A DNA stretch of 64,000 nt from Companilactobacillus allii (GTDB taxonomy: Bacteria; Bacillota; Bacilli; Lactobacillales; Lactobacillaceae). Positions 16,271 to 57,917 of the stretch are shown here, piece by piece. The notes beneath the pieces were generated by a model that ran no database searches, was not told the origin of the DNA, and saw nothing but the letters and a program-made list of their open reading frames with translations. A program made the translations under genes and the position numbers. The stretch's first letter is position 1, and each line of letters begins with the position of its first letter. The stretch spans positions 610,053 to 674,052 of the forward strand of contig NZ_CP019323.1 of the NCBI RefSeq assembly GCF_001971585.1, given 5' to 3'.

Positions 16271-17650
16271 ATGAATAATGATATAAATACACGGATACCG
16301 CCCAATGACAAGGATGCTGAACAAGCTGTCTTAGGGGCGGTATTTCTAAGTCAAGATGCATTAGTTGAATCAATGGAATACGTCGAGTCAAAAGACTTTT
16401 ACCAACATGCTAATCAATTGGTATTCCAAGCCATGGTCAATTTGAATGACCGTGAAGAACCAGTCGATGTTGTGACGGTTCAAAATGAATTAGATAAGAT
16501 GAATCAAATAGAAGACATTGGCGGAGTTGGCTATCTAGCTGACTTGGCCAATGCTGTCCCAACAGCTGCTAACACGGCTTACTATGCAAAAATCGTTAAG
16601 AATAAAGCCGTCCTAAGAAGATTGATCAATGCTGGTACAGAAATTGTCAGCCGTAGTTTTGAAGAGGACGACGATCTTGATACTATTATTGATAAATCTG
16701 AACGTGACATTATGGAAGTGTCAGAGAATCGAAGTAACAAAGGATTTCGTAAAATTTCAGATGTTGTTAAGTCATCGTTTGAAGAAATCGATAAGTTATA
16801 TGATCAAGATACAGATGTCACAGGATTATCAACTGGATATAAAGATTTGGACGCTTTGACAACTGGTTTACATAAAGATGAGCTAGTCATACTGGCAGCT
16901 CGTCCTGGTATGGGTAAAACAGCCTTTGCACTGAACTTGGCACAAAATGCCGCAACTAAGGATCAAGCTACAGTAGCGATATTCTCACTAGAAATGGGTG
17001 CGGAACAGTTAGTTAATCGTATGCTTTGTTCAGAGGGAAGTATTGACGCTAATGCACTTAGAACCGGACAATTAGATGAGAATCAGTGGAATAGTTTAGT
17101 TGTGGCGATGGGAAGTTTATCAAAGACAAATGTCTATATTGATGACACTCCAGGTTCAAAAATGACTGAAATAAGATCAAAATGTCGAAGACTTTTAAAA
17201 GAAACCGGCAAACTTGATTTGGTTATCATTGATTATTTACAATTGATCGAAGGTACCGGTCAAGAGAATAGACAACAAGAAGTGTCTGTTATTTCCCGTA
17301 ATCTAAAAAAATTAGCAAAAGAATTACATGTGCCAGTAATCGCGCTATCACAGCTTTCCCGTGGTGTTGAAGCCAGACAAGATAAGAGACCGATGTTGTC
17401 AGATATCCGTGAATCTGGTTCAATTGAACAGGACGCTGATATTGTTGCCTTCTTATATCGAGATGATTATTATCGAGATGAAGATGGTGATGGTGAAAAT
17501 AGTGAACCCGAAAATCAAGAAGACCAAGATGTCGGCGAAGTTGAAGTTATCGTCGGAAAAAATCGTTCAGGTCCAAGAGGAACGGCAAAGCTATTGTTCG
17601 TGAAATCGTATAATAAGTTTTCGTCGATAGCCAACATACCCGAAAACTAG
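16271..17650 (+). CDS. dnaB: replicative DNA helicase (DnaB family)
   Basis: Hexameric 5'-3' helicase at the fork (called DnaC in Bacillus). 459 residues: N-terminal collar domain (RIPPNDKDAEQAVLGAVFLS), a linker helix, then a RecA-fold domain with Walker A AARPGMGKTAFALN near residue 217, Walker B LVIIDYLQL, and QLSRGVEARQDKRP. The SD is weak, and the 6-bp distance from rplI suggests coupling. Its stop TAG is the junction with palindromic element A. No intein or truncation. Confidence 0.98.
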   Translation: MNNDINTRIPPNDKDAEQAVLGAVFLSQDALVESMEYVESKDFYQHANQLVFQAMVNLNDREEPVDVVTVQNELDKMNQIEDIGGVGYLADLANAVPTAANTAYYAKIVKNKAVLRRLINAGTEIVSRSFEEDDDLDTIIDKSERDIMEVSENRSNKGFRKISDVVKSSFEEIDKLYDQDTDVTGLSTGYKDLDALTTGLHKDELVILAARPGMGKTAFALNLAQNAATKDQATVAIFSLEMGAEQLVNRMLCSEGSIDANALRTGQLDENQWNSLVVAMGSLSKTNVYIDDTPGSKMTEIRSKCRRLLKETGKLDLVIIDYLQLIEGTGQENRQQEVSVISRNLKKLAKELHVPVIALSQLSRGVEARQDKRPMLSDIRESGSIEQDADIVAFLYRDDYYRDEDGDGENSEPENQEDQDVGEVEVIVGKNRSGPRGTAKLLFVKSYNKFSSIANIPEN

Positions 17651-17766
17651 AGCGTGTCGAAAGACGGTAGCTCCTGAGCATTACCTAACTGCTGATGGTA
17701 TCAACGAAGTTGGTGCAATCAGTAGTTAAGTAAGCGCAGGGAGTTGTCTTTCGTAAACGCGTTTAC
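17649..17766 (+). repeat. palindromic stop-linked element A (divergent member)
   Basis: Starts AGAGCG overlapping the dnaB TAG. The outer stem CGAAAGAC/GTCTTTCG (17658-17665/17746-17753) encloses an internal loop with GAGCATTA ... TAAGCG. Then comes an inner stem TTACCTAACTGCTGAT with ATCAGTAGTTAAGTAA. Architecture and loop motif match elements B-E, but both stems differ in sequence while remaining paired. The 3' flank has the family CGCGTTTA. It occupies nearly all of the dnaB-purA gap. Confidence 0.75.
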
Positions 17767-17817
17767 ACCACTAACGAACAAATCCCAAAAAACAAAGTGC
17801 AAGAGGAGAAATTGGAT

Positions 17818-19107
17818 ATGACAACAGTTGTTGTAGTAGGAACCCAATGGGGCGACGAAGGTAAAGGAAAGATTACTGATTACTTTAGTGGAGAAGCTAA
17901 TATTATTGCTAGATATCAAGGTGGAGACAATGCAGGTCATACTTTGAATATTGATGGACAAGTTTATAAATTACGATCAGTTCCATCAGGTATTTTATAT
18001 TCAGATAAAACTAGTGTTATTGGTAACGGAGTAGTTTTGAACCTTGAATCTCTAGCTGATGAATTGAAACGTTTGAACGAACAAGGTGTCAATACAGACA
18101 ATTTGAAGATCTCAAATCGTGCTCAATTAATCCTTCCTTACCATATCCAATTAGATAAGTGCCAAGAAAAATCACGAGGTAATTCTAAAGTTGGTACTAC
18201 TAATCGTGGTATTGGACCCGCTTATATGGATAAAGCTGCCCGTGTTGGTATCAGAATGGCAGATATTTTGGATAAAGATATCTTTAAAGCAGAACTAGAA
18301 GAAAACCTTAAACAAAAAAATGAAATGTTCACTAAGATTTATGGTGTTGAAGCCATGAAGTTTGATGATATTTTTGATAAATTTTATGAAATCGGACAAA
18401 GCTTGAAGGATCGTGTGATTGATACTTCAGCTTACTTAAATAAAGAATTAAAAGCTGGCAAGAACGTATTATTTGAAGGCGCACAAGGAATCATGTTAGA
18501 TATTGACCATGGTACATATCCATACGTTACTTCATCTAATCCTGCTGGTGGTGTTACAACTGGTGCTGGAATTGGTGCACCATTGATCGATAATGTTATC
18601 GGTGTTGTTAAGGCCTATACATCACGTGTTGGTGCTGGTCCATTCCCAACAGAGCAAGATAACGAAATAGGAAACTTCTTACGTGAAGCCGGACATGAAT
18701 ATGGAACAGTTACACATCGTCCACGTCGTGTTGGTTGGTTAGATACAGTAGTATTGCGCCATTCAGCCAATGTCTCAGGTGTGACACATCTATCACTTAA
18801 TTGTCTTGATGTTTTAACTGGATTGAAAGAAATCAAAGTATGTACAGGATATGATTTGAATGGAAAAGTCATTGATGAATATCCAGCAAACTTGAATATC
18901 TTGGCTCAATGCAAACCAGTTTATAAGACATTTGAAGGTTGGAGTGAAGATATCACTCAAGCTAAGAGTTTAAGTGATTTACCTAAACAAGCCCAAGCAT
19001 ATCTAGAATTCTTGAAGAGCGAATTAGGTGTTGAATATGCAACAGTTTCAGTTGGACCTGATCGCGAACAGACTATCGAAGTTCATGACGTCTGGGATAG
19101 AGCGTAA
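17818..19107 (+). CDS. purA: adenylosuccinate synthetase
   Basis: Joins IMP and aspartate using GTP, the first committed step to AMP. 429 residues from ATG 17818, with N-terminal [16 protein letters not shown] (P-loop and catalytic Asp), [14 protein letters not shown], and C-terminal [12 protein letters not shown]. The frame is open 7 codons upstream, but AGAGGAGA lies 9 bases before 17818 and homologues begin at this point. It is preceded by element A and its stop TAA falls inside the outer stem of element B. Confidence 0.97.
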
Positions 19108-19227
19108 CAATACACGGGTAATTTCCGAGCATTAACCTAAATAGTCCTAGTAATCACGACGTGATTACTAGGACTATTTAAGTTAAGCGGAAGAAATTGT
19201 GTATTGTTACGCGTTTGCGAAGCAAAC
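19099..19227 (+). repeat. palindromic stop-linked element B
   Basis: Begins AGAGCG inside the last codons of purA and includes its TAA. Outer stem CGTAACAATACAC/GTGTATTGTTACG is a perfect 13 bp (19103-19115/19199-19211). The internal loop is TTTCCGAGCATTAACC opposite TTAAGCGGAAGAAATT. The inner stem of about 20 bp is TAAATAGTCCTAGTAATCAC and its complement. A 3' mini-hairpin GTTTGC-GAA-GCAAAC follows. Confidence 0.9.
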
Positions 19228-19326
19228 AAGGAATAATAAGTAAGTAGTAGATGAACAAGAACCTAAGAAAAATTATATGTATTACATGTAAAGTAGATTG
19301 AAGCATAAATATAACTGCCTAAAATA

Positions 19327-19378
19327 AAAAAGGCTAGGACAAGAAATTTTTAAAATTTCTAAGTTCTAGTCTTTTTTT
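19327..19378. terminator. bidirectional terminator between purA and ABC exporter
   Basis: AAAAAGGCTAGGAC...AAATTT pairs with AAATTT...GTTCTAGTCTTTTTTT; A- and T-tracts on both sides suit both strands. It closes the minus-strand ABC operon. The rest of 19228-19395 shows nothing else recognisable. Confidence 0.8.
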
Positions 19379-19395
19379 CGAATAAATCAATACCA

Positions 19396-20172
19396 CTAAT
19401 TATTATGGTTATAAGCCAAAACAGTCAAAGGTGCAAAAATCACAACGATTCCAATTCCGAATAACAATACTAATAACGCTTCATTAGTCCAACTACCAGT
19501 TGCCAAAATCTGTCTAATAGCAGTGATGACATAGGTTATTGGATTCATATAGGCAATAAATTGCATAGTTTTTGATAATGTCTTGATAGGAATAAAAGCA
19601 TTGGATAAGAACGACAATACTAACATAATAGTCAATGAAAGACTTTGAATAGCTGTTGCACTTTTAACTAATAGTCCCAACAAAACGAAGATCCATGAAA
19701 TTGCCCAACCAGTAAATATAGCAAGTAATCCACTTACGATTACCCAACCAAGACCAGCAACTGGACGCCAACCCATTAAATAACCAGTTGATAGAGCAAC
19801 GATGGTCGCAAGTACTAAACGAAAAATATCAGCAAAGAGTTGTCCAGCTAATGGTGCAATGTGTGCAATCGGTAATGATTTGAATCTATCAAAGACACCA
19901 GAATCCAGATCCTCTCTAATCTGTGAACCAGATCCAGAGGCTGCTGACAACATTGTTTGAATTAATATTCCTGGAACAATTGTTGGCAGATAACTTTGGA
20001 CATTACCAGAGATAGCACCTCCAAATAAATATCCAAACATCAGCATGAACATAACGGGTTGAATAATCACATCCATGAATCTGTCGGGATTGTGAAATGT
20101 CTTTAACAGATTACGATAGGCCATTGTAGCGGTGTTCATAATTAAATTACCACGGTTTGTTTTTACTTCCAT
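19396..20172 (-). CDS. ABC-2 type transporter permease (DrrB-like)
   Basis: Membrane half of a drug or lipid exporter with the ATPase encoded just upstream. 258 residues, six predicted membrane segments, and the ABC-2 pattern VMFMLMFGYLFGGAI near residue 45 plus SFLSNAFIPIKTL and MNPITYVITAIRQIL near the C-terminus, typical of the daunorubicin-resistance DrrB group. SD GAGGA precedes ATG 20172. It lies 18 bp after the ATPase, divergent from a MarR gene that probably represses it. The substrate cannot be inferred. Confidence 0.9.
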   Translation of the reverse strand: MEVKTNRGNLIMNTATMAYRNLLKTFHNPDRFMDVIIQPVMFMLMFGYLFGGAISGNVQSYLPTIVPGILIQTMLSAASGSGSQIREDLDSGVFDRFKSLPIAHIAPLAGQLFADIFRLVLATIVALSTGYLMGWRPVAGLGWVIVSGLLAIFTGWAISWIFVLLGLLVKSATAIQSLSLTIMLVLSFLSNAFIPIKTLSKTMQFIAYMNPITYVITAIRQILATGSWTNEALLVLLFGIGIVVIFAPLTVLAYNHNN

Positions 20173-20190
20173 AATTAATATTCCTCTTTC

Positions 20191-21123
20191 CTAATTCTTT
20201 CCTACTGTTAAATTCATGAATACATCATCCAAAGATGGTTCTTGAACGGTTAAATTACTGATAGCAATTTTAACTTTTTGTAATGCTACTAGAAGTGGTG
20301 CTAACTGATCAATATTATGTAAAGTAGCACTCAATTGTTGACCGGTAACACTGATTGATTCTCCCAATTGATCCTTTACTAGTTTTATAGCTGTATTTAT
20401 TTTTGAATTATCATTAATAGTGAAGTTCAACTTTGTTCCACCTATTTGTTTCTTAAGTTCTTCAGGAGTTCCGATTTTTACCAATTTACCGTGATCAATC
20501 ACGGCAATTCTATCTGCTAATTGATCGGCCTCGTCCAGATATTGTGTCGTGAGTAAGACTGTTGAGCCTTGTGCAACCAGTTTTCTGATTGTATCCCACA
20601 TTTGAGTTCTAGTTCGTGGATCTAGTCCCGTTGTTGGTTCATCTAAGAAAATCAAAGCTGGACGATCAATTAAACTGACTGCTAAATCCAGTCTTCTACG
20701 CATCCCACCTGAAAAGTCCTTGAGTGGTTTATCGGCTGAATTTACTAAAGAGAATTTAGTTAATAATTCCTGTGTACGTTGTTTAGAAGATGCTCTAGAT
20801 AGTTCATTTAATCTTGAAAAGATCATCAAATTTTCTCGAGCGGAAATATCTTCATCAATCGAAGCATATTGACCAGTTAAACCAAACATTGATCGAGAGA
20901 GTCGACCTTCTTTAACAGAATCGTGACCGAATATTTTCACACTGCCACTAGTTATCTTCAATAATGTGGTTATCATTCTTAAAGTCGTTGTTTTACCAGC
21001 TCCATTTGGCCCTAGTAATCCAAATACTTCACCTTTCTTCACATTAAATGAAATATCGTCGACTGCAGTTTTATTACCATATTTTTTTGTTAAATGATTA
21101 ACTTCGATAGCATTCATTACCAT
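20191..21123 (-). CDS. ABC transporter ATP-binding protein (DrrA-like)
   Basis: Cytoplasmic ATPase of the exporter. 310 residues: Walker A LLGPNGAGKTTTLR near residue 38, Q-loop, signature DFSGGMRRRLDLA, Walker B LIFLDEPTTGLD, H-loop, then a C-terminal DrrA-type extension (about 220-310) ending in the family-typical EPSLDDVFMNLTVG. Two Met codons lie near the start (21123 and 21117); AGAGGT favours either. First gene of the minus-strand pair, with operator-like palindromes in its promoter region. Confidence 0.93.
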   Translation of the reverse strand: MVMNAIEVNHLTKKYGNKTAVDDISFNVKKGEVFGLLGPNGAGKTTTLRMITTLLKITSGSVKIFGHDSVKEGRLSRSMFGLTGQYASIDEDISARENLMIFSRLNELSRASSKQRTQELLTKFSLVNSADKPLKDFSGGMRRRLDLAVSLIDRPALIFLDEPTTGLDPRTRTQMWDTIRKLVAQGSTVLLTTQYLDEADQLADRIAVIDHGKLVKIGTPEELKKQIGGTKLNFTINDNSKINTAIKLVKDQLGESISVTGQQLSATLHNIDQLAPLLVALQKVKIAISNLTVQEPSLDDVFMNLTVGKN

Positions 21124-21152
21124 AATTGTTATTACCTCTTCAGTTTTACTTG

Positions 21153-21229
21153 GTTAATCAGGTTACCTGATTAACTACATTGTAAGGGCACCTGATTAAT
21201 TATGCAAGTATTTTGTCAGCCCACCTGAC
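21153..21229. promoter_or_regulatory. probable MarR operator cluster
   Basis: A perfect palindrome GTTAATCAGG-TTA-CCTGATTAAC (21153-21175), a second copy of the half site CCTGATTAA (21191-21199), and a weaker pair GTCAG...CTGAC (21215-21229). All lie in the 155-bp divergent gap between the ABC exporter and the MarR gene. The shared CAGG/CCTG-ATTAA motif is what a dimeric winged-helix repressor would bind. Confidence 0.75.
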
Positions 21230-21278
21230 TATCTTTTAAAAAACCAACCGGTATAATAATCTTTGGAGGCTAAAAAAT

Positions 21279-21794
21279 ATGTCTAACTTACTAAAACAAA
21301 AGAACGCAGCAGGTAAACTAATAGAGTTTGGGATGGTACGTCACACAGTAGACAACATGTATCATAGAGACTCTGATGAAAATGAACATCGTCCAACATT
21401 TCAAGGACAAGGCAAAATATTATTAGCATTGTCACAAAATGATGGAATATCTCAAAAACAACTAGCCACAAGCCTTGATCTAACAGCACAGTCAACCGCT
21501 GAATTCGTAAATAAACTAGTCAAAAAAGGGTTAGTTACAAAAGAAAAGTCAACAAGTGATAAAAGAATGACAGTCATTCGATTGACTAATGCTGGTCGTG
21601 AAATAGCAAATAAAGAATCAAAAGAAATCCCCGAATTTTTAGATGTATTGACCGATGAAGAACTAGATCAATTCGCCAATATCTTAACCAAGATAAATTC
21701 AAGACTCTACGAAGAAATACATTCCAATAATTCAACCCTGTTTCAGAAGACACAAAGAGTGATTGAGAACCATTTGCGTGATTGGTTTCTTTAG
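21279..21794 (+). CDS. MarR family transcriptional regulator
   Basis: 171 residues. The winged helix includes ILLALSQNDGISQKQLATSL, a recognition helix AQSTAEFVNKLVKKGLV and the wing KSTSDKRMTVIRLT, followed by a dimerisation helix. It is divergent from the ABC exporter with palindromic sites between them, a usual arrangement for a ligand-released repressor of an efflux system. -10 TATAAT at 21252-21257 and SD TGGAGG. The ligand is unknown. Palindromic element C begins 7 bases after its stop. Confidence 0.92.
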   Translation: MSNLLKQKNAAGKLIEFGMVRHTVDNMYHRDSDENEHRPTFQGQGKILLALSQNDGISQKQLATSLDLTAQSTAEFVNKLVKKGLVTKEKSTSDKRMTVIRLTNAGREIANKESKEIPEFLDVLTDEELDQFANILTKINSRLYEEIHSNNSTLFQKTQRVIENHLRDWFL

Positions 21795-21800
21795 AGACGA

Positions 21801-21911
21801 GAGCGCAACAATACACGGGAATTTCCGAGCATTAACCTAAATAGTCCTAGTAATCACGACGTGATTGCTAGGACTATTTAAGTTAAGCGGAAGAAATTGT
21901 GTATTGTTGCG
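21801..21911 (+). repeat. palindromic stop-linked element C
   Basis: Starts AGAGCG. Outer stem CGCAACAATACAC/GTGTATTGTTGCG (21805-21817/21899-21911) is perfect. Compared with B, the T to C change in one arm is matched by A to G in the other, so pairing is kept. Internal loop and inner stem are the same as B except for one base. Confidence 0.9.
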
Positions 21912-22163
21912 CGTTTAATAAGCAAGTTTGAGAAGAAAAAATAGGAGCTCAAAAGTATCAAAGGCCGTAAAAACAGTAAGCGGAAGAAATTGTGTATTGT
22001 TGCGCGTTTAATAAGCAAGTTTGAGAAGAAAAAAAGAGGAGCCCCAAAGTATCAAAGACCATAAAACCAGTAATCAGAAGAAATTGTGTATTGTTGCGCG
22101 TTTACGATTCAGAGCGTTGAACAGAGAAAATTGTGTATTTTCACAAGTTTACGACAAGTTTGA
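21884..22163 (+). repeat. tandem copies of the element C 3' arm
   Basis: TAAGCGGAAGAAATTGTGTA with its tail (TTGTTGCGCGTTTAATAAGC...) recurs at 21884, 21977 and, degenerated, 22071, giving a period of 93-94 bp. A last worn copy (GAGAAAATTGTGTATTTTCA) is near 22124. Only the 3' arm and its tail are repeated, not the 5' arm. Open frames here are not credible genes. Confidence 0.85.
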
Positions 22164-22172
22164 AAAAATCAA

Positions 22173-23108
22173 TCAATTCCGAGTATCAGTAGAAATAATC
22201 CCACGTTGGAATTGAATGAACTTATTGTTATTTCGATCATAAGTCAAAGTATAATAATAAATTTTATTTTTGGTCTGTTGCTTCAAGTAAATCCGTGAAT
22301 ATCTAGGTACGTCAGATAATTGATAACCCACGATACCAAAGTTGGTCACACGTGAATTGGAATTTCTGGCCAGATTATATAAACCATTATTACTATTGTC
22401 AGCATCTAACCCTAGATTCAAGGACAATTGGTTGAAGTCACCAGGGTCAGTCGCATTAGTCATAGTTAAATTTGAGTTAATAATAGTAGTTTTAACTCGT
22501 TGTATAAATGACTTAGCCTGATCTATTCCAGAACTCCCTAGTTCAACATCTGCAAGCACATATTTTGGTGGATAGAGGTTAGTCTTGGTATTCAGATACT
22601 TAGCAGAAGTGATATCTTCACCACTGTAATACAATCTGTAACGATAGCTAACGATATTCTTAGTGTCGTCGTAACGATTGCAACTTATAGTTATATAGTT
22701 ACCATGAGTGTCTCTACCAAAGTTAAGTAGTGTCATCTTGAAAATATAACGGTGGGACTTTTTATTGATTCGCTTAATCAAAGACTTTTTTTGATCCGTT
22801 GATAAAAAGTCTAAAGATTTGTTGTTCTCATATTCCTCATTAATAGTAGCAACTAGACCAATGGCTTTTTCCTTAGTCTTCTCCATATCACCAGTTTTTA
22901 GTGAAATAGACTTTGGAGTAAGACCGTCATCAATATTTTTAGGATTAACGATCAATGAAAAGGGAATTGTTAAGCTAGAAATTTTGTCTACAGTTTTATT
23001 TTTAATATTATAGATGTTGAAACCGTAGGTAATTACTACAATTAGAACTAATCCTAGTAAAATAAACCATTTGATGTATTTTTTATTTAATTTTTTCAAA
23101 TTTTTCAC
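22173..23108 (-). CDS. membrane-anchored extracellular protein, unknown function
   Basis: 311 residues, not recognised. It has a short basic N-terminus (MKNLKKLNKKYIK), one membrane helix at about 13-32, and then a soluble domain rich in N, D, K and Y that should lie outside the cell. No lipobox, LPXTG or catalytic motif is visible. It is divergent, across 64 bp, from another single-pass unknown protein that sits in front of a class A PBP, so a role at the cell envelope is plausible, but this rests on context only. Confidence 0.7.
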   Translation of the reverse strand: MKNLKKLNKKYIKWFILLGLVLIVVITYGFNIYNIKNKTVDKISSLTIPFSLIVNPKNIDDGLTPKSISLKTGDMEKTKEKAIGLVATINEEYENNKSLDFLSTDQKKSLIKRINKKSHRYIFKMTLLNFGRDTHGNYITISCNRYDDTKNIVSYRYRLYYSGEDITSAKYLNTKTNLYPPKYVLADVELGSSGIDQAKSFIQRVKTTIINSNLTMTNATDPGDFNQLSLNLGLDADNSNNGLYNLARNSNSRVTNFGIVGYQLSDVPRYSRIYLKQQTKNKIYYYTLTYDRNNNKFIQFQRGIISTDTRN

Positions 23109-23172
23109 CCTTTATAAGTGTGTTACTTTAATATATATAATATACAAAAGATACGTCCATTTGGAGAAAATA

Positions 23173-24459
23173 ATGAAAGATAAGAAAGATTTAAGAGGTA
23201 GCAAAGATTATATGCTTATCATAAGTGCAGCTGTTGGTATCATAACGGCTGTAATATTCTTTGTTATGCTTTCAAGAGGAGTTGTAAATGCCGTCGTTAC
23301 TTCTAAGATATCTGATCAGTATCAAGATAAGGAATTGGAAGTATTGAAGACTGATCTTGATTATCATTCATTGAATGTAATTGGGAAATTGATCGATGTA
23401 TCTGATGGTCACGTTATAACAACTAGTAATGTTAAGAAGTACAAGGAGTTAGAGACATACATAAGTGCTAGAAAGAAGCGCTCTTCAGATATTTCTGCGT
23501 TGTATGATGGCAAGAATAATTATAAAGACGATGTGACAAATGATAAGATCAATAATCTTGATAAAGACTTGTTAAATGAAAAGAACCAAGATGTTTACCA
23601 GAAATTGCGAAATAAGCTGGATACGATTCAAATTTGGTATGAACAGACACAAGATGCAGACAAGTATATCTCTAAAGTCTGGAATAAATTCAATGATGAT
23701 AATTCTAGTCTGACTTTTAAAAAGGTTTCAATGTCTAGTACATACTATAAATTAATCAAAAATAAATCCATCAAAAAGCAATGGGCAAGTGCCGTAGAAC
23801 AAATGCGTGATTATTACTCTAATCACAAAAATGAAAGTACTCAAGTCGCCGCCGCAAAGCAAGAATTAGAAGAATTGAAGAACTCACCATTAACACAGAA
23901 GTATACTCCAGCTAAAGTAGACATTGTTTCAAGTCTGAAATTCTCAAGCGATGCCGAAGATGCACTAGTTGCGGCTGGATTAACCGGTAAGTATGTTTTG
24001 TATTATGATTCAAGTTCCAACAATCTTGCTCTAATGACCAAGACAGGTAATAAGTACGTTGCACAAGATGGATACATCAACGTTACTAGTTCTAAAGTAT
24101 CCAAAGGTAAATATACTATTAAACGCCTAGTTTCAGCTGGCTCAAATGATGCAATCGTTACAGATAGTAATAGTGATAGTTTTGGTCAATACATAACCAA
24201 TGCTACTGATGATGATTTATCTGAGTTGGATATATCAGATGCTGACAATACTACTGCTGATTTTAACTCAGCTACACCAGTATTTTGGTTCAAGAATAAC
24301 AGTGATTTAACAAGTTCAATTTACTTTGCGAGTGGTGAATCGATCGGATTCATCTATGCGGGTGGATCTAGCTATGATAACGGAATGCAGATCAGTTCAT
24401 CTGACTTATCAAGCTTGAAATCTGAAATTTCAACCGGCATCACATTTTATGTTAATTAG
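23173..24459 (+). CDS. single-pass membrane protein upstream of PBP, unknown function
   Basis: 428 residues from ATG 23173, chosen because TTGGAGAAA lies 6-8 bases upstream; the frame is open 34 codons earlier without an SD. A cytoplasmic start (MKDKKDLRGSKDY) is followed by a membrane helix (about 14-37). A helical, charged extracellular region (about 45-255) probably forms coiled coils, and a beta-rich C-terminal domain (about 260-428) contains GKYVLYYDSSSNN. The overall layout recalls wall-synthesis partner proteins, but I recognise no family. The PBP gene starts 8 bp after its stop, so the two are almost certainly co-transcribed. Confidence 0.78.
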   Translation: MKDKKDLRGSKDYMLIISAAVGIITAVIFFVMLSRGVVNAVVTSKISDQYQDKELEVLKTDLDYHSLNVIGKLIDVSDGHVITTSNVKKYKELETYISARKKRSSDISALYDGKNNYKDDVTNDKINNLDKDLLNEKNQDVYQKLRNKLDTIQIWYEQTQDADKYISKVWNKFNDDNSSLTFKKVSMSSTYYKLIKNKSIKKQWASAVEQMRDYYSNHKNESTQVAAAKQELEELKNSPLTQKYTPAKVDIVSSLKFSSDAEDALVAAGLTGKYVLYYDSSSNNLALMTKTGNKYVAQDGYINVTSSKVSKGKYTIKRLVSAGSNDAIVTDSNSDSFGQYITNATDDDLSELDISDADNTTADFNSATPVFWFKNNSDLTSSIYFASGESIGFIYAGGSSYDNGMQISSSDLSSLKSEISTGITFYVN

Positions 24460-24467
24460 AGGTCATT

Positions 24468-27110
24468 ATGCGGGAAACTAAATTAAGGAAAACACATATA
24501 AAAAAGCATAGAAAATGGCCATGGGTCATTTTGACTATTCTATTATTGATAGTCGCTTTGATCAGTTTGTTTTGGGCCAAATACGGATATGACATCAAGA
24601 ATAATATTGCTGATGGTTATTCGTACAGTCAAGGACTAACCAAGAATGACTTTAAACCAAAGAATAGTACCGTTATATACGATCGTAACGGTAAGACTAT
24701 CAAAAAATTGTCCCAATCAAGTTCTAATTATACATCGATAAATAAGATCAATAAAAACATTACTAAGGGACTAGTTTCCGTGGAGGATCAGCGTTTTTAC
24801 ATTCATCATGGTGTCGATCCGTATGCAGTATTGCGTTCATTTGTGGCAAGACTGTTCCATAGAAGAATTGAGGGTGGATCTACTCTAACTCAGCAATTAG
24901 TCAAAAATGTAGTTTTAAAAGATCAATCACAAACAATCAATCGTAAACTCAAAGAAATGGTTATTGCCCAACAATTGGAGAAGAAGTTTACTAAGAAGCA
25001 AATTCTGGAGTTTTACATCAATGATGTCTATATGGGACATGGTTCATATGGTTTCAGTAGTGCGGCTAATTACTACTTCTCACAAGATCAAGATAGCTTA
25101 TCTATTGATAAAGTAGCTATGCTTGTCGGCATCCCTAATAACCCAGTCTATTATGATCCAATCAACTACCCCAAGAGATCAGTATTGCGTCGAAATATGG
25201 TTCTATCTATATTTTATAAGAATAAGTTAATAAGTAAAAAGACATATGATAAAGCTAGGAAAGCCCCATTAGGACTGAAAGTCAATGAGCATAAGTATGA
25301 TAATGATGTTTCAAATAACTATGCGCTGAGTTATGCAGTTTATAATGCGACTGAAGAGTTAATGAAATCATCTGGCTTCAATATAAAATATAACTTCGAT
25401 ACTGCGGCTCAAAGAAAGAAGTATGATTCACAATATCAACAAGCCTACGAGCGAGCTCATGGTGAATTGATGGAAGGTGGATATAGTGTGCACACAACTA
25501 TTGATATGGATATTCAAAATCAGGTCGAAAGTATTATTCAAAAGCAATATGCATCATATACTGGTAGGGATGCACATAATAAATTAACACCGCAAGTATC
25601 TAGTACCGTTATCGATAATAAGACTGGGGATGTTTTGGCCATAGTTGGTGGACGAACGACTGAAACTGATCAAGTTAATCGTGCAATCAGTGGTTACCGT
25701 CAACCCGGATCAACAGCCAAGCCACTAGTTGCCTATGCACCAGCCTTTGAACGAGGATATTTGCCACAAAGTACCGTAGTTGATTCAGCCGTCAGCAATA
25801 TTAGTAATTGGTACAGTGGCTATACTGGAAAAACTACACTGAGACATGCACTAGAAAACTCTATAAATACCGTCGCCTATAAATTGGCGCAACAAGATAC
25901 TAAACATACCTATTATGATGATTTAACTAAGATGGAATTCGCAAGATTAACTCCTAAAAAAGTCACCCCTGGAGATAATAATCCACGACTGGCATTGGGA
26001 AGTTTCACGAATGGTACAACAACAACAGAGATGGCTTCAGCATATAGTTCATTTTCACGTAATGGACAATTTATCCATCCAAGTAACTTAACGAGCATTT
26101 ATGATACGACAAATGAACGCTATATTTATCAAAATACGCATTTGAAGAAGAAAGTCTATACAGCAAACGCCAGTTATATGATGTTAAATACCATGCAATC
26201 AGTTATTACTGATGGATTGGGTAAGGCAGCGGCATTGGATAATTATAGTCACACCGCTGGTAAGACAGGTACAACTGATGATACTAAGGATTCATATTTT
26301 GTTGGGATGACTAAGGACTTCACGATTGCTAACTGGACAGGAAACGATATACCGTCCACTTTGACATCCTCTGAGCAATCATTACCAATGGCTACCTTCA
26401 AAGCTGTTGGGGAATATTTGGTTGATCAACTAAAAGAATCAGATACTGACTTTAAGAAGCCAAGTACTGTAAAGGTCAGCGGTGATAATTTAAGCGTTGT
26501 TAAGAGTACTAAGAAACCAAGCATTCAAGACGTGATCGATACTAACTTTGATAAGTATAATAAAGACCAAGAAACTAAGAATTCAGATCGTTTGTATAAT
26601 CTAGACTATCGAATAATCTACCATCTGACTAAGAAAGAAGAATATAGTCGTGAGGGTAAGGTTCAAAAAGCGATAGATAAATATAACGAGTCACCAATAG
26701 AGAAACAATCTCAATATGATAAGAAACTAGATCAATTGCAAAAGATACGTTATCTGAATGTTAATGTTAAACGACAAAGTGCCAAAATCGAGTTTAATAA
26801 TCAGATCCTAGAGTTACAAAAAGATCTCAACTTGAAACAAGCCATGTTCCAGTCTGAAAAAGACAATAAGAAGATCTCCGGTTATGAAGCACAAAAAGAA
26901 GAACTAGAAGATCAAAGAGACCAAGAACGAAGCGATAAAGTAGCCGAGTTACAAAAACAGTACGATACACAACTAGACAAGGTCAAAAGTGCTTATAAGA
27001 ATGACGATTCAGATAAAGCAGATCAGAAACAAAAATTAGTTGATATTATGAATGAGATTAGAAGTTATGGTGGAAGTGCACCGGATTTGAAAGTTAATAT
27101 CTCACAATAA
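24468..27110 (+). CDS. class A penicillin-binding protein (PBP1A family)
   Basis: Bifunctional peptidoglycan glycosyltransferase/transpeptidase anchored in the membrane. 880 residues: basic N-terminus, membrane helix 17-37, GT51 domain with catalytic Glu106 (SVEDQRFYIHHG) and EGGSTLTQQLVKN, then the transpeptidase with Ser415 and Lys418 (PGSTAKP), SIN at 465-467 and KTG at 599-601. After residue 690 the usual C-terminus is replaced by about 190 residues of charged, probably coiled-coil sequence (QKEELEDQRDQERSDK). SD GAGGTC; co-transcribed with the preceding single-pass protein. Element D begins 6 bases after its stop. Confidence 0.95.
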   Translation: MRETKLRKTHIKKHRKWPWVILTILLLIVALISLFWAKYGYDIKNNIADGYSYSQGLTKNDFKPKNSTVIYDRNGKTIKKLSQSSSNYTSINKINKNITKGLVSVEDQRFYIHHGVDPYAVLRSFVARLFHRRIEGGSTLTQQLVKNVVLKDQSQTINRKLKEMVIAQQLEKKFTKKQILEFYINDVYMGHGSYGFSSAANYYFSQDQDSLSIDKVAMLVGIPNNPVYYDPINYPKRSVLRRNMVLSIFYKNKLISKKTYDKARKAPLGLKVNEHKYDNDVSNNYALSYAVYNATEELMKSSGFNIKYNFDTAAQRKKYDSQYQQAYERAHGELMEGGYSVHTTIDMDIQNQVESIIQKQYASYTGRDAHNKLTPQVSSTVIDNKTGDVLAIVGGRTTETDQVNRAISGYRQPGSTAKPLVAYAPAFERGYLPQSTVVDSAVSNISNWYSGYTGKTTLRHALENSINTVAYKLAQQDTKHTYYDDLTKMEFARLTPKKVTPGDNNPRLALGSFTNGTTTTEMASAYSSFSRNGQFIHPSNLTSIYDTTNERYIYQNTHLKKKVYTANASYMMLNTMQSVITDGLGKAAALDNYSHTAGKTGTTDDTKDSYFVGMTKDFTIANWTGNDIPSTLTSSEQSLPMATFKAVGEYLVDQLKESDTDFKKPSTVKVSGDNLSVVKSTKKPSIQDVIDTNFDKYNKDQETKNSDRLYNLDYRIIYHLTKKEEYSREGKVQKAIDKYNESPIEKQSQYDKKLDQLQKIRYLNVNVKRQSAKIEFNNQILELQKDLNLKQAMFQSEKDNKKISGYEAQKEELEDQRDQERSDKVAELQKQYDTQLDKVKSAYKNDDSDKADQKQKLVDIMNEIRSYGGSAPDLKVNISQ

Positions 27111-27115
27111 GCGTA

Positions 27116-27243
27116 AGAGCGTAACAACACACGGGAATTTCCGAGCATTAACCTAAATAGTCCTAGTAATCACGACGTGATTGCTAGGACTATTTAAGTT
27201 AAGCGGAAGAAATTGTGTGTTGTTACGCGTTTGCGAAGCAAAC
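27116..27243 (+). repeat. palindromic stop-linked element D
   Basis: Starts AGAGCG. Outer stem CGTAACAACACAC/GTGTGTTGTTACG (27120-27132/27215-27227) is a perfect 13 bp. One base differs from B in each arm, and the changes are compensatory. Internal loop and inner stem match B and C; the 3' mini-hairpin GTTTGC-GAA-GCAAAC is identical to that of B. Confidence 0.9.
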
Positions 27244-27467
27244 AAGGAGAATAAAAGAAAACGGAATATGACATTAGGTCTATTAAAAATGAAACACAAA
27301 AAATTATATATCATTACAAGTCGAAGCAAACAAAGAAAAGAGAAAGTATATAACAAGAGATTATCAAGCAACATAATTGATGAGAGCTTTTAACAAAACA
27401 GAAAAAACTAATATGCCATTAAACATTGAAGCAAAGCACACCGAAAAAACCGTGCCACATAAGCATC
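27244..27467. other. intergenic stretch, nothing recognised
   Basis: AT-rich sequence between element D and the next promoter. A 41-codon frame from ATG 27268 has no SD at a usable distance (AAGGAG lies about 19 bases away), so I do not call it. Confidence 0.6.
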
Positions 27468-27495
27468 TTGTCTTCTGTAATGCATATGATAATAT
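27468..27495 (+). promoter_or_regulatory. promoter for the membrane protein at 27525
   Basis: -35 TTGTCT (27468-27473), 16-bp spacer, -10 TAATAT (27490-27495); leader of about 25 bases before the SD GGGGAG. Confidence 0.6.
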
Positions 27496-27524
27496 GAACT
27501 TGATTGGTTATAGGGGAGAAAAAA

Positions 27525-28484
27525 TTGAAAAGAATAATCTATAGTACGTTTTTGACCATCATGATATTCTTTGTCGGATTCGTTGTTTCAAAACTGGATA
27601 CTATAAAGTACAGTAACTTGATGAATAGATTCAATATGAGTGATGATGCTTTGATTCTAAAGTCAAATTCACATCAAGATATTCAAAACACTATAACAAG
27701 TGTACATGATGCTAAGTTAAAGAATTATAAGTTGATTTTTTTAGAAGATAAGCATGAGAGCATGGGATACGTCTATAGTGACCATTCTATAAAGGATCTA
27801 CCTATAGTCTCTGGAGATAGTTTCAATAAGAAAGTCTTTAACTCGCAAATAGTCTTTGCCATCCAAGGAACTTCTTCAAAATTAGAAGATTATAAACCAC
27901 AAAGTCAAAACTACATTAAACACAACGGTAATTATATTTCGGTTATTGGAAAAATGAACTTTCCCAGTGCTGATATTTTGAATCGACAGACGTTGATATC
28001 ATTATCTCCTAGACAAAATAACGCAGACGTCTTGTTAAAAAACGTAGCCATAGCCGTTGATGGTGGAATTGTAAATTCTAAAAAGGGATATCATAAGTTA
28101 AAGAAAATTCTGAAAGTTTCAGATACTCAAAAATACAGACGACATAATATAAGTGCCTTTGATAAACACCAACTTGTGATGTTTAGAGTTGTGTTAGTCT
28201 TCATCGTGGTATTAATAGGTGGGATTGAATATCTTGCTTTGACGCCTATTAAGCATGATTTGAAGAATGCCAAATTAACTGGTGACTTGAAGAATAATTA
28301 TCGTAATGGATTGTTACTGAAGTATTATCTGTATAGTGTGATACCTTATGGAATTAGTTATTTTCTTATAAATTTTAGGTTCATGATTGTTCGACATTAT
28401 ATCGTTAATACTGTTATGGTGTTTTCGATTTTGATGATGATCGTTATGGGATTGGTTAGGTTGAATTTTTCTGAGGATTCTTAG
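27525..28484 (+). CDS. FtsX/MacB-like orphan membrane protein
   Basis: 319 residues from TTG 27525, with GGGGAG 6 bases upstream; an earlier TTG at 27504 lacks an SD. It has an N-terminal membrane helix (about 5-25), an extracellular domain of about 190 residues, then three membrane helices (about 212-232, 260-282, 290-312). This is the layout of one FtsX-type permease half, as in the DUF1430 protein at 50249, but the second half and any neighbouring ATPase are absent. Possibly a decayed or specialised member; function unknown. Confidence 0.6.
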   Translation: MKRIIYSTFLTIMIFFVGFVVSKLDTIKYSNLMNRFNMSDDALILKSNSHQDIQNTITSVHDAKLKNYKLIFLEDKHESMGYVYSDHSIKDLPIVSGDSFNKKVFNSQIVFAIQGTSSKLEDYKPQSQNYIKHNGNYISVIGKMNFPSADILNRQTLISLSPRQNNADVLLKNVAIAVDGGIVNSKKGYHKLKKILKVSDTQKYRRHNISAFDKHQLVMFRVVLVFIVVLIGGIEYLALTPIKHDLKNAKLTGDLKNNYRNGLLLKYYLYSVIPYGISYFLINFRFMIVRHYIVNTVMVFSILMMIVMGLVRLNFSEDS

Positions 28485-28499
28485 TGATCGTGATATGAA

Positions 28500-28600
28500 G
28501 TATAAACTTGCTCTTCTTTATTTGCTTCTCAAATTTGCTGAAACGTGACACAAACACAATTTCTTAGCTCTTCTTCTTTATTTATCAAACTTGCTGAAAC
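28500..28600 (-). repeat. tandem copy of the element E 3' arm
   Basis: On the minus strand AAGAAATTGTGTTTTATATC of element E, with tail ACGTTTCAGCAAGTTTGA, is repeated as AAGAAATTGTGTTTGTGTCA with ACGTTTCAGCAAATTTGA, a period of about 57 bp. The same 3'-arm-only duplication is seen after element C. Confidence 0.8.
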
Positions 28601-28714
28601 GTGATATAAAACACAATTTCTTCCGCTTAACTTAAATAGTCCTAGCAATCACTTTGTGATTACTAGGACTATTTAGGTTAATGCTCGGAAATTACCCGTG
28701 TTTTATATCACTCT
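28601..28714 (-). repeat. palindromic stop-linked element E
   Basis: Minus orientation. AGAG and the following TGA form the end of the permease gene at 28708. Outer stem GTGATATAAAACAC/GTGTTTTATATCAC is a perfect 14 bp with a sequence unlike B-D. The internal loop TTTCCGAGCATTAACC and inner stem TAAATAGTCCTAGTAATCAC are shared with B. Confidence 0.9.
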
Positions 28715-45801: not shown

Positions 45802-45809
45802 AATGTGAC

Positions 45810-45937
45810 AGAGTGTGACAGAACACGTTCAGTTTTCGTTTATAAGCCTAAAAGGCCGGTATTTACGTATGTAAATATCGGTCTTTTAGGCTTATATTGA
45901 GAAAATTGTGTTCAGTCACACGTTTTCGTCAGAAAAC
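45810..45937 (+). repeat. palindromic stop-linked element F (second subfamily)
   Basis: Starts AGAGTG. Outer stem GTGTGACAGAACAC/GTGTTCAGTCACAC (45813-45826/45908-45921, one mismatch). The internal loop CGTTCAGTTTTCGTTTATAA faces TATTGAGAAAATTGT, and the inner stem is AAGCCTAAAAGGCCGGTATT and its complement. A 3' mini-hairpin GTTTTC...GAAAAC follows. The loop motif is shared with G and H and differs from A-E. Confidence 0.88.
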
Positions 45938-46005
45938 AAGTTATGTATCACAACAACCCTGACTTATAGGGAAAAATCGCATTTATGAATAATTAGCGTC
46001 AAATA

Positions 46006-46036: not shown

Positions 46037-46074
46037 TGGTAGTGATTTGTTAATACACTGGAAAGGAGCACGTT

Positions 46075-50074: not shown

Positions 50075-50120
50075 CGCTCTAGGATTCCTCATTTAAGGGG
50101 AATTCTAGAGCGTTATTTAT
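50069..50120 (+). terminator. terminator of the nuclease-helicase operon
   Basis: AAATAACGCTCTAG...TTCC pairs with GGAA...CTAGAGCGTTATTT. The stem includes the stop codon, and its 3' arm contains AGAGCG, the start motif of the palindromic elements. Confidence 0.88.
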
Positions 50121-50248
50121 ATCCAACAGTTGTTTTCTGAAAAAATATATTTTTTTACATAATCTTTACAACAAATATATATATATTATATATGTAATTG
50201 CTATTATAGAATTGTTCCAAAATAAAAGAATACGGAGTAGTGATTTTT

Positions 50249-52300: not shown

Positions 52301-52302
52301 GT

Positions 52303-52959: not shown

Positions 52960-52983
52960 AAACAATAGATATGTGATTCAAAC

Positions 52984-53094
52984 GTGCGTCAAAAAACAAT
53001 TTTCCGTTTAATACAAAAAAGCAGACATTCATTTACGTGAATATCTGTTTTTTCGTATTATAAACGAAAACTGAACGTATTTTGACGCACTCTA
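52984..53094 (-). repeat. palindromic stop-linked element G (second subfamily)
   Basis: Minus orientation, starting TAGAGTGCG where TAG is the nrdF stop. Outer stem GTGCGTCAAAA/TTTTGACGCAC is a perfect 11 bp. Internal loop CGTTCAGTTTTCGTTTATAA faces TTAAACGGAAAATTGT. The inner stem, about 20 bp around TTTACGTGAA, has a sequence unlike F or H. Confidence 0.88.
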
Positions 53095-54120: not shown

Positions 54121-54132
54121 AGTTGAATCCTC

Positions 54133-56298: not shown

Positions 56299-56659
56299 AG
56301 TTATTCACTACTTTCTTGAAGTTTTCTACGTCTTTATTTGTACCGTTAAATTCGAATTCGAATACAACGGGAACATCTAGTCCTTTGGCAATGTCGTTAG
56401 CTGTGTGATTGTAAAGGGTGTTGAAGTTACGATTGCCACCACCAGCTAATCCAACACAGTTCTTGGCGTTGTCTTTATACTGCAAGAAATCTACGACAGG
56501 GTCCATCATATCATCGTCATATGCCGGAACGATGAGAATAAAAGACCGACCCATTTCGTGGAACGGATCGGCGTCGTTAATTTCATATCCATTTAAACCG
56601 GTCTTTGAAACGAAACGTCTGGTTTGACCGGTAATTGAGTAGTAGGCTATTTCAACCAT
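56285..56659 (-). CDS. nrdI: flavodoxin-like NrdI
   Basis: Supplies oxidant for manganese cofactor assembly in NrdF. 124 residues with the flavodoxin-like start MVEIAYYSITGQTRRFV (FMN phosphate loop) and GLAGGGNRNFNTLYN. Start overlaps the nrdH stop by one base (TAATG). Confidence 0.94.
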   Translation of the reverse strand: MVEIAYYSITGQTRRFVSKTGLNGYEINDADPFHEMGRSFILIVPAYDDDMMDPVVDFLQYKDNAKNCVGLAGGGNRNFNTLYNHTANDIAKGLDVPVVFEFEFNGTNKDVENFKKVVNNFGTK

Positions 56660-56889
56660 TAGTTAGCTAGTGCTTTCAAGCTATCTGGGCGGAAACCGAC
56701 GATTGGGTCGCTATTTTCAGGCATAACTACTGGTACGCTTTGAAAACCCTGTTGTTTTAAAATGTCTAGATATTGAGGCTCTTTATTAATATTATGTTCT
56801 TCAAAGTTGATGTTGTGTTCTTTGAGATATCTCTTTGTCATTTTGCATTGCATGCAGTTGTTTTTACTATATACGATTATATTGTTCAT
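56659..56889 (-). CDS. nrdH: glutaredoxin-like NrdH redoxin
   Basis: Electron donor to NrdE. 76 residues from ATG 56889: NNIIVYSKNNCMQCKMTKRY with the CxxC active site CMQC, and GFRPDSLKALAN at the end (NrdH GFRP motif). The frame is open 11 codons upstream, but GAGGGAG precedes 56889 at a proper distance. First gene of nrdHIEF. Confidence 0.94.
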   Translation of the reverse strand: MNNIIVYSKNNCMQCKMTKRYLKEHNINFEEHNINKEPQYLDILKQQGFQSVPVVMPENSDPIVGFRPDSLKALAN

Positions 56890-56970
56890 GTGGTCCACTC
56901 CCTCGAAATGTAATTCATTCACTAGTATAAAACATTCAATATACCAATACTAGTAATTGTTCTCATAAAA

Positions 56971-56986
56971 GTACTATATATGGTAT
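56971..56986. promoter_or_regulatory. candidate NrdR box upstream of nrdH
   Basis: GTACTATATATGGTAT resembles the 16-bp NrdR box (acaCwATATATwGtgt). A weaker AT-similar copy may lie near 56932-56947, but the spacing of about 39 bp is not the usual 31-32. The rest of 56890-57173 holds no gene. Confidence 0.45.
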
Positions 56987-57173
56987 TTTAAATAGATTGG
57001 TATACATCATAGTGTGGCTGTATCGACCGTTCCAGCGCTTTTTGTCTAGTGAATAATATTCTGATTTTTATTAAAATTTGATGTTTCGTGGTAAAATTAC
57101 CGTAATGACTATTATAGGTTTTTCAGGTAAAATTACAAATAAGAAAAAGCAATAAACTAGTAGGGAGAAAATT

Positions 57174-57806
57174 ATGAATTCTTGGAATTTTGTGGGAATT
57201 ATCGCATGGCTATTAGTGATTGCGCTATTAGTACTTGTGGTATTTAATATTAGAAATCGTCATCTAAAAATATTAGTTGTTCAAAAGAATGGAATAACTT
57301 GGAAAACGATCACTGTAGATTTTATCGAGATACTTGTGGTTATTTTTGCAGTTAGTGGGATGCTTTATACAACTTTGTTCTCAAGGGTTGATTTGAAAAA
57401 TAAAGCTGACATTGAGATGACTTATAAATATGAACCAATGATCGTTCAGACTACTGATGATGGTCAAGGTTATTATGTAAAGATCGATAAGAAAGATAAG
57501 CATAGTGATAATGACGTCTATCAATACTGGGTAAATAATTCGACATATTCTGTATCAAGTCGTAATGCAGCAATTTCAGATGCTACATTGCCATTTAACG
57601 TTTCAGGGATGAGGATTAGTTGGCCAATGAAGAAGATCACAAAGATGGATGCAAAGTATCAACAAGCTTATGTGATCACTGCACATGCAAAGTATAAGAA
57701 TAACTTCTCAAATGGCTTAGGATTAAAAGCAGGCAGATTTGCGATGGAGTATCGTGTACTACGTGTGCCAGCTAGATCATTTATTAATGTGGAGAATGTA
57801 AAGTAG
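57174..57806 (+). CDS. LVIS_2131 family membrane protein
   Basis: 210 residues. Two N-terminal membrane helices (about 5-26 and 48-68) frame a short loop (NRHLKILVVQKNGITWKTIT). An extracellular domain follows (about 75-210). The pattern matches the lactobacillus LVIS_2131 family, of unknown role. SD AGGGAGA. Its TAG is shared with the start of palindromic element H. Confidence 0.78.
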   Translation: MNSWNFVGIIAWLLVIALLVLVVFNIRNRHLKILVVQKNGITWKTITVDFIEILVVIFAVSGMLYTTLFSRVDLKNKADIEMTYKYEPMIVQTTDDGQGYYVKIDKKDKHSDNDVYQYWVNNSTYSVSSRNAAISDATLPFNVSGMRISWPMKKITKMDAKYQQAYVITAHAKYKNNFSNGLGLKAGRFAMEYRVLRVPARSFINVENVK

Positions 57807-57917
57807 AGAGTTTCTAAACGCTCAGTTTTCGAGTATAACCTAAAAAGAGTCCTAGTATTCACGCAAGTGAATGCTAGGACTCTTTTAAATTAAACGGAAA
57901 AAACTGTGCGTAGAAAC
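57805..57917 (+). repeat. palindromic stop-linked element H (second subfamily)
   Basis: TAGAGAG starts on the stop codon. Outer stem GTTTCTAAACGC/GCGTAGAAAC. Internal loop CTCAGTTTTCGAGTATAA faces ATTAAACGGAAAAAACTGT, as in F and G. The inner stem CCTAAAAAGAGTCCTAGTAT partly resembles that of B-E (AGTCCTAGTA), linking the two subfamilies. Confidence 0.87.

What the first reader, a model, noticed from the sequence alone, without database searches (positions are those of the whole stretch)
17649..57917. A dispersed family of eight large palindromic elements with shared architecture
Elements A (17649), B (19099), C (21801), D (27116), E (28601, minus), F (45810), G (52984, minus) and H (57805) share one plan: AGAG start, outer stem of 8-14 bp, asymmetric internal loop with conserved motif, inner stem of about 16-22 bp, and often a 3' mini-hairpin. 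The outer stems differ (CGTAACAATACAC, GTGATATAAAACAC, GTGCGTCAAAA, GTTTCTAAACGC) yet always pair. Conserved pairing with diverged sequence points to selection for a folded RNA or DNA cruciform, not just recent copying. I know no named lactobacillus repeat like this.
Basis: partly seen in the sequence, partly recalled or inferred. Interest (0 to 1): 0.85.

Follow-up and report, generated by a model that had tools for sequence, protein, structure and literature searches.

The report
Hairpin repeats parked at stop codons
Lactic acid bacteria carry a large, apparently unnamed family of about 118-base hairpin repeats that sit on the stop codons of genes, often supplying part of the stop signal, and keep their folded shape while their sequence changes.

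Summary
They belong to a family with at least 152 places in this genome, found in 82 of 151 sampled Lactobacillaceae genomes and 27 genomes of other Lactobacillales families, but in none of the 198 other genomes of a phylum sample. Rfam has no match at its own thresholds. Across seven genera, 33 of 35 consensus pairs change on both sides, above shuffled and slid controls. Of 149 matches, 133 follow a same-strand gene; in 105 the stop ends within 12 nt of the first base, and in 37 exactly on the second base, so the element supplies the AG of TAG in 36. G-U pairs outnumber A-C mismatches, so the gene-sense strand is probably the folded one. Best reading: a dispersing, transcribed 3'-UTR hairpin, REP-like in behaviour but not a REP. 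Function is inferred. A terminator role is supported in this genome and not in other Companilactobacillus. No mobility enzyme was identified.

The parts
17649..17764 (+). Element A, at the stop of dnaB; the TAG stop ends on the element's second base
   Evidence: CM 84.4 bits (missed by the capped genome search); fold z -8.05; DnaB domains
19099..19216 (+). Element B at the end of purA; the reading frame ends on a TAA inside the element's outer stem
   Evidence: CM 125.4 bits; z -12.68; purA by Pfam
19217..19235 (+). 3' mini-hairpin tail of B (GCGAAGCAAACAAGGAATA)
21800..21916 (+). Element C, after a MarR-family gene
   Evidence: CM 120.5 bits; z -12.39; Pfam
21926..22154 (+). Three 3'-half 'tail' copies behind element C, at spacings of 93, 94 and 47 nt; the first two have the same outer-stem sequence as C, the third differs
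27116..27232 (+). Element D, after a penicillin-binding transglycosylase/transpeptidase gene
   Evidence: CM 121.4 bits; z -14.03; Pfam
27233..27247 (+). 3' mini-hairpin tail of D
28597..28714 (-). Element E, at the end of an amino acid permease gene (minus strand); the stop codon lies inside the element
   Evidence: CM 120.2 bits; z -11.52; Pfam; stop position
28518..28554 (-). Extra 3'-half tail copy behind element E
   Evidence: family D11
45810..45925 (+). Element F (type 2), after a DUF1634 gene
   Evidence: CM 114.8 bits; z -14.08; Pfam
52980..53093 (-). Element G (type 2) at the stop of a ribonucleotide reductase small-chain gene (minus strand), TAG = T + AG of the element
   Evidence: CM 96.3 bits; z -8.41; row 663032; Pfam
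57805..57923 (+). Element H, at the stop of a 210-aa gene with no Pfam family; TAG = T + AG of the element
   Evidence: CM 84.3 bits; z -11.62
60489..60540 (-). Collapsed derivative: outer stem only, inner stem lost, followed by a T-rich stretch
   Evidence: CM 23.9 bits, E 0.011; sequence

Best explanation
These are copies of one order-wide family of dispersing hairpin repeats of Lactobacillales. Each copy starts exactly with AGAG, usually on or within a few bases of a gene's stop codon and in the gene's orientation, so it becomes the first part of the mRNA's 3' untranslated region. It folds as RNA into a long stem with a variable, compensating outer stem, conserved internal loops (GAGCATTA / TAAGCGSAG core) and a variable, compensating inner stem. 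SHOWN by sequence: family, structure conservation, sense-strand bias, stop-codon position, tandem, nested and plasmid copies. INFERRED: that it is transcribed; that it acts like REP elements near stop codons (shielding the 3' end of the mRNA, meeting the terminating ribosome, and in some genomes helping or replacing the terminator); and that it spreads as a non-autonomous element through an enzyme not yet identified, probably one that handles the folded single strand. Where it lands in the stop codon (T|AA) its own AG rebuilds a stop, TAG.
For: Copies: 149 matches at E<=0.01 at 148 places (one place matched on both strands) with only 150 candidates scored; element A and three more own places were missed there, so at least 152. 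Spread: 82/151 Lactobacillaceae genomes, 21/40 genera; 36/198 genomes of the order, 27 of them outside the family, some with a single weak match; 0 of the 198 other genomes of the phylum sample. Structure: 93.8% of cells paired vs 63.8% in shuffles and 38.0-46.5% in slid controls, 33/35 pairs with double changes. Strand: G-U 148 vs A-C 27; sense strand more stable in 107 of 149, antisense in 41. Position: 133 same-strand, 12 opposite, 4 with no gene, of 149; 105/133 within 12 nt of the stop; 37 exactly at +2, against 9 of 141 neighbouring genes within 12 nt on the 3' side. Other species, leading units only: 51 of 64 same-strand in Companilactobacillus, 46 of the 51 within 12 nt; 19 of 26 in other genera, 12 of the 19 within 12 nt. 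An annotated E. faecium CDS ends on the element's second base (in a second plasmid the nearest gene ends 124 nt before it). Empty sites: dnaB ends TTAAATAG or TTAATAG in 21 of 30 genus loci shown, while intact occupied sites read TAG|AG. Dispersal: left edge, tandem units of different sequence, three elements nested in hairpins of others, C. allii and Enterococcus plasmids. REP precedent near stop codons: passages of PMC12306157.
Against: No expression data were available. Canonical terminators are depleted behind elements in this genome (6/116 vs 33/83 controls within 100 nt) and in other genera (3/26 vs 26/68 within 150 nt), but not in other Companilactobacillus (30/61 vs 57/135), so a terminator role is not general. 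Y1 transposases do not track copy number, the genome has no reverse transcriptase match, and left and right flanks show no general inverted repeat, so the spreading mechanism is unknown. An excess of G-U could partly come from C-to-T change on the sense strand. Many orthologous stops are occupied in several species (34 filled or remnant vs 59 empty ends by a simple motif rule, mostly from loci that were fetched because they hold elements or purA; purA alone gives 14 and 23), so part of the distribution may be old inheritance. Genes were called mechanically as ORFs of 80 codons or more.
Confidence: 0.6

Rival explanations
1. They are U-tract-poor transcription terminators that replaced the ordinary terminators of their genes.
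For: In this genome only 6 of 116 element-bearing gene ends have a canonical terminator within 100 nt behind the element, against 33 of 83 control ends. In 28 genes with an empty ortholog, 16 have terminators in at least half of the empty orthologs, but only 3 own copies have one behind the element. The outer stem ends in CGTTT(T). A collapsed copy at 60489-60540 looks like a compact terminator.
Against: In other Companilactobacillus the ordinary terminator is as frequent behind the element as at control ends (30/61 vs 57/135; visible at purA in several species). The U-tract is only 3-4 nt. Some elements in Levilactobacillus follow what looks like a complete terminator.
Confidence: 0.35
2. Purely selfish single-strand DNA elements (IS200/REP-like): the hairpin is conserved because a transposase or recombinase must recognise it, and the stop-codon position is a safe landing site with no mRNA function.
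For: Left edge at AGAG, nested insertions, arrays of unlike units, plasmid copies, patchy copy number from 1 to at least 89 in the genus.
Against: No enzyme found: Y1_Tnp in 16 of 31 genus genomes, absent from high-copy G002, G006, G008, G015, G020 though present in the own genome and in high-copy G017 and G018; no element within about 2 kb of the own Y1 gene; RVT_1 absent from the own genome. Tolerance alone predicts a wide spread of distances behind the stop, not a spike at +2.
Confidence: 0.3
3. Ancient 3'-UTR RNA elements, vertically inherited and homogenised by gene conversion, with little or no movement.
For: Orthologous stops carry elements in different species.
Against: Near-identical copies in the genome (32 of 149 at 95% or more), insertions into other elements, copies on plasmids, and genus members with very few.
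Confidence: 0.12

Closest known systems
REP / BIME elements with RAYT transposases (PMC2817692, passages; PMC12306157, passages)
   Same: High-copy extragenic palindromes, some close to stop codons, in arrays, structure kept by compensating change; REPs within 15 nt of a stop are reported to reduce translation.
   Different: REPs have a GT(A/G)G head and a short GC-rich palindrome, and their RAYT gene is flanked by two inverted REPs. These have an AGAG head, about 118 nt, internal loops, a fixed orientation to the gene, and no RAYT link found here.
Efa-1 of Enterococcus faecalis (PMC2267715, passages)
   Same: 163 nt, 65 copies, intergenic, two adjacent stem-loops; the family found here also occurs in Enterococcus.
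ERIC/RU-1 (127 bp) and YPAL/RU-2 (168 bp) of enterobacteria (PMC2267715 passages; PMC2759123 search listing only; the pairing of the names is recalled)
   Same: Long imperfect palindromes of similar size, dispersed between genes, MITE-like.
   Different: Other phylum; no stop-codon anchoring seen in what I read; sequences not compared.
Intrinsic terminators
   Same: Hairpin at the gene end, in the sense direction.
   Different: Far longer, conserved internal loops, only 3-4 T behind the stem, and in some species a separate terminator behind it.
Integron attC sites (recalled, no call)
   Same: Variable stems with conserved extrahelical bases, directly behind stop codons, in tandem arrays.
   Different: These sit behind unrelated chromosomal genes such as dnaB and purA; no integrase was sought.

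Membership tests
REP (RAYT-associated) | GT(A/G)G head followed by a short GC-rich palindrome | tested here: not met
   Alignment of 63 copies starts AGAG in nearly all rows, with a 118-nt hairpin; definition from PMC2817692 passages
REP (RAYT-associated) | A Y1 transposase gene flanked by two inverted copies | tested here: not met
   Own Y1 locus: 0 element matches in 4401 bases; no Y1 match in five high-copy genus genomes, four of them draft assemblies
REP (RAYT-associated) | High copy number, extragenic, palindromic | tested here: met
   149 matches; 133 behind a same-strand gene, 105 of these within 12 nt of its stop
Any Rfam 15 family | Score at or above the gathering threshold | tested here: not met
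   Only rRNAs in the window. A permissive scan of 17000-29000 gave six hits, none at gathering; one (MIR3932, E 8.3) lies on the inner stem of element E, opposite strand
Intrinsic terminator | GC-rich hairpin followed by a U-tract of about 7-8 (recalled) | tested here: not met
   Stem followed by TTT or TTTT only
Intrinsic terminator | Ends transcription of the upstream gene | tested here: inconclusive
   Canonical terminators depleted behind elements in the own genome and other genera, not in other Companilactobacillus; no RNA data
Efa-1 | Sequence similarity to the E. faecalis family members | not testable with these tools
   Family sequences are in a supplementary archive; supplement look-ups were capped at 0
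ERIC / RU-1 | Sequence similarity to the ERIC consensus | not tested
   No ERIC sequence was fetched; enterobacteria were not searched with the model
RT-mobilised elements | Reverse transcriptase gene in the genome | tested here: not met
   RVT_1: 0 matches in G000; 9 of 33 genomes in all, among them high-copy G006, G008 and G018

The most novel reading that the evidence does not exclude
A stop-codon-targeting mobile element: an order-wide family that inserts into or right behind stop codons in one orientation, rebuilds the stop with its own AG, and turns itself into the gene's 3' end, acting as a portable 3'-UTR module or terminator. Its targeting would have to read translation or transcription ends rather than a DNA sequence motif, because the base before the element is not fixed while the distance to the stop codon is.
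Probability: 0.25. Interest if true: 0.9.

Novelty: new variant of a known kind. Interest (0 to 1): 0.72.

Why it matters
A structured repeat with more than 150 copies in this genome, present in about half of the sampled Lactobacillaceae genomes and not matched by Rfam, changes how gene ends should be annotated in food and gut bacteria: stop codons, C-terminal residues and 3' ends of many genes are partly supplied by the element. It offers natural filled and empty gene pairs to test what a hairpin at the stop codon does to mRNA and protein output, and a sharp puzzle in target choice: how an element finds stop codons.

Tried and rejected
Direct chance similarity: rejected by covariation and slid controls. 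A known RNA family: Rfam at gathering over the window and permissively over 17000-29000, nothing convincing. RAYT or Y1-driven REP: see the membership test. Retrotransposition: no RVT_1 match in the own genome. Insertion into palindrome centres as a general rule: flank inverted repeats of 7 or more nt in 12 of 149 against a control mean of 9.65; three nested cases are clear. First terminator counts (7 of 133 behind elements, 2 and 3 of 133 in its controls; 12 of 124 vs 21 of 94 control ends within 150 nt) used stricter hairpin rules and were followed. A general terminator role: weakened. Phage origin: one type 1 query against phages found nothing; the two viral contigs that matched the pattern did not match the covariance model. 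Literature: seven searches looked for a description and one for REPs at stop codons. Their listings, which for searches showed only part of the papers found, named no such family in lactobacilli; the library holds open-licence PMC papers only.
Full report
OBSERVATION. The eight elements are present as described. Each folds far better than shuffles of itself (z -8.05 to -14.08, 0 of 200 shuffles). A covariance model made from 63 copies (alignment A2, which includes the eight) finds these eight in the window at 84 to 125 bits; for seven of them the opposite strand scores only 36 to 63 bits. Two weaker matches remain, a collapsed copy at 60489-60540 (E 0.011) and 58766-58880 (E 0.33). A second model from seven genera finds the same eight.

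FAMILY IN THIS GENOME. DNA searches with element D gave 67 matches and with element F 56, tails and both strands included, with only 40 candidates scored each. The model gave 149 matches at E<=0.01 with 150 candidates scored; one place is matched on both strands, so these are 148 places. Element A and three places listed (C1:398464, 1313380, 1317291) are not among them, so the genome holds at least 152. There are two main types. Type 1 has AATTTCCGAGCATTAAC...GTTAAGCGGAAGAAATTG; type 2 has GTTCAGTTTTCGTTTATAA...GGAGAAAATTG. Element A and many relatives have a third form, AGCTCCTGAGCATTACC...AAGCGCAGGGAGTTG.

TAXONOMY. Named records place the family in Companilactobacillus and six other Lactobacillaceae genera: Levilactobacillus, Lapidilactobacillus, Ligilactobacillus, Pediococcus, Lacticaseibacillus and Latilactobacillus. 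The scan stopped at 120 stretches, 80 of which were listed. Five of the listed pattern hits, in unrelated phyla, look like chance and got no model match. With the seven-genus model, 82 of 151 Lactobacillaceae genomes and 21 of 40 genera match at E<=0.001, many of them at the limit of 24 scored candidates. Across the order 36 of 198 genomes match, 27 of them in other families, from single weak matches (E 6.8e-4) to the limit of 18. Plasmids of Enterococcus (56 records), Lactococcus (13) and others carry copies at 60-80% identity to an unnamed relative's element. Among 199 genomes of the phylum sample only the window's own matches. The window's genus is most likely Companilactobacillus: two C. 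allii plasmids carry type 2 copies at 83-85% identity, and the element positions of its same-genus genome G043 coincide with those of C. insicii DSM 29801 loci at several places. The genome itself was never named to me.

STRUCTURE. In the 63-copy alignment 31 of 35 pairs have changes on both sides and 96.9% of cells are paired, against 81.6% in shuffles. In the 64-sequence, seven-genus alignment it is 33 of 35 pairs and 93.8%, against 63.8%, with 0 of 500 shuffles reaching any of the five measures; sliding the partners by 1-3 columns drops pairing to 38.0-46.5%. The alignments were made by MAFFT without structure, although the structure was derived from them. The core internal loop GAGCATTA / TAAGCGSAG stays in most rows while the stems on either side vary. 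G-U exceeds A-C in paired columns: 148 vs 27 across genera and 86 vs 41 within the genome, leaving out columns rich in G-U; the sense strand is the more stable in 107 of 149 copies and the antisense in 41. That favours a functional gene-sense strand, though C-to-T bias on the sense strand could add to it.

POSITION. For all 149 matches I read the flanks. A gene on the same strand ends nearby in 133, an opposite-strand gene lies upstream in 12, none in 4. Of the 133, 105 have the stop's last base within 12 nt of the element's first base, and 37 have it exactly on the second base. All 37 have T before the element; in 36 the stop is TAG made of T plus the element's AG. On the 3' side 9 of 141 neighbouring genes lie within 12 nt, so the anchor is the stop codon. 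Leaving out tandem followers, 51 of 64 leading units in other Companilactobacillus follow a same-strand gene, 46 of them within 12 nt of its stop; in other genera 19 of 26, 12 of them within 12 nt. In one Enterococcus faecium plasmid the annotated gene ends on the element's second base; in another the nearest gene ends 124 nt before it.

EMPTY SITES. At dnaB, 21 of 30 displayed genus loci have no element and read TTAAATAG or TTAATAG; the other nine hold an element or a remnant, and intact ones read TAG|AG. At purA, elements with different stems sit at the stop in several species, twice in tandem in some. Among own genes with the stop at +2 and an empty ortholog, 6 of 12 ortholog ends have the same C-terminal length and 6 differ by 1 to 4 residues.

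DISPERSAL. 32 of 149 copies have a neighbour at 95% or more, identity times coverage. Among 71 near-identical pairs at distant places (not independent), identity falls to 0.38 at the base before AGAG and stays at 0.25-0.48 over the next nine, while on the right it fades over about 40 nt. Head-to-tail arrays hold units of different sequence, and some of identical sequence. Three type 2 elements sit inside the hairpins of other elements, with right end CACAACCCC. 3'-half tails repeat behind full copies, often with the same outer stem. No mobility enzyme tracked the elements.

FUNCTION. In this genome canonical terminators are rare behind elements: 6 of 116 within 100 nt against 33 of 83 control gene ends, Fisher p about 1e-9. 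For 28 genes with at least one empty ortholog, 16 have a terminator in at least half of the empty orthologs and 3 have one behind the own element. Other genera show the same (3 of 26 vs 26 of 68 within 150 nt) but other Companilactobacillus do not (30 of 61 vs 57 of 135). So the element probably becomes part of the 3' UTR, and in some genomes it may stand in for the terminator. REP elements within 15 nt of a stop codon are reported to reduce translation, and REPs to stabilise mRNA (passages of PMC12306157). By analogy I expect this element to act on the mRNA 3' end and on terminating ribosomes; this step is inferred.

NOVELTY. Rfam 15 has no match at its thresholds. The literature searches named above listed no description in lactobacilli. 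PMC2267715 (passages) lists Efa-1 of E. faecalis, 163 nt, 65 copies, intergenic, two adjacent stem-loops; it may be a member of this family, but its sequences could not be compared. I file this as a new variant of a known kind: dispersed extragenic palindromes, with an anchor at the stop codon and a self-supplied TAG that I did not find described in what I read.

Noticed in passing
window 60489-60540 (minus strand): A collapsed element that keeps only the outer stem, right behind the stop of a minus-strand gene and followed by a T-rich stretch; it looks like an element turned into a compact terminator.
   Followed up: partly
window 21926-22154: Three 3'-half copies at spacings of 93, 94 and 47 nt behind element C, the first two with about 50 nt of shared spacer; how 5' halves are lost while 3' halves multiply is unexplained.
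   Followed up: partly
window 58766-58880: A weak full-length match to the model (16.7 bits, E 0.33), perhaps a decayed element or chance.
   Followed up: no
L107 (G010), dnaB and purA ends: Both sites hold collapsed remnants with the hairpin deleted (AGAGCGTG joined to TTTCAG, and GAGCGTGTCAAAACGCATTTT).
   Followed up: no
L110 (G017) and L108 (G020), purA ends: Short forms of the element in which the long inner stem is replaced by a small loop.
   Followed up: no
L145, L159, L160, L191 (Levilactobacillus), L163 (Lapidilactobacillus), L146, L194 (Companilactobacillus): Some elements start directly behind the T-run of what looks, by eye, like an ordinary terminator instead of a stop codon, so both landing sites seen are 3' ends of genes or transcripts.
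   Followed up: partly
plasmid records CP069367.1, CP069368.1, CP069369.1: Three records labelled Klebsiella pneumoniae from the same kind of sample carry Enterococcus-like elements; possibly mislabelled or mixed assemblies.
   Followed up: no
L346-L349 (G348, G247; one of them matches an Aerococcus record at 77%): Elements of a divergent form lie beside another repeated intergenic sequence (CCAAGGTCTCTCGCCTAGCGAG and variants).
   Followed up: no
   Followed up: no
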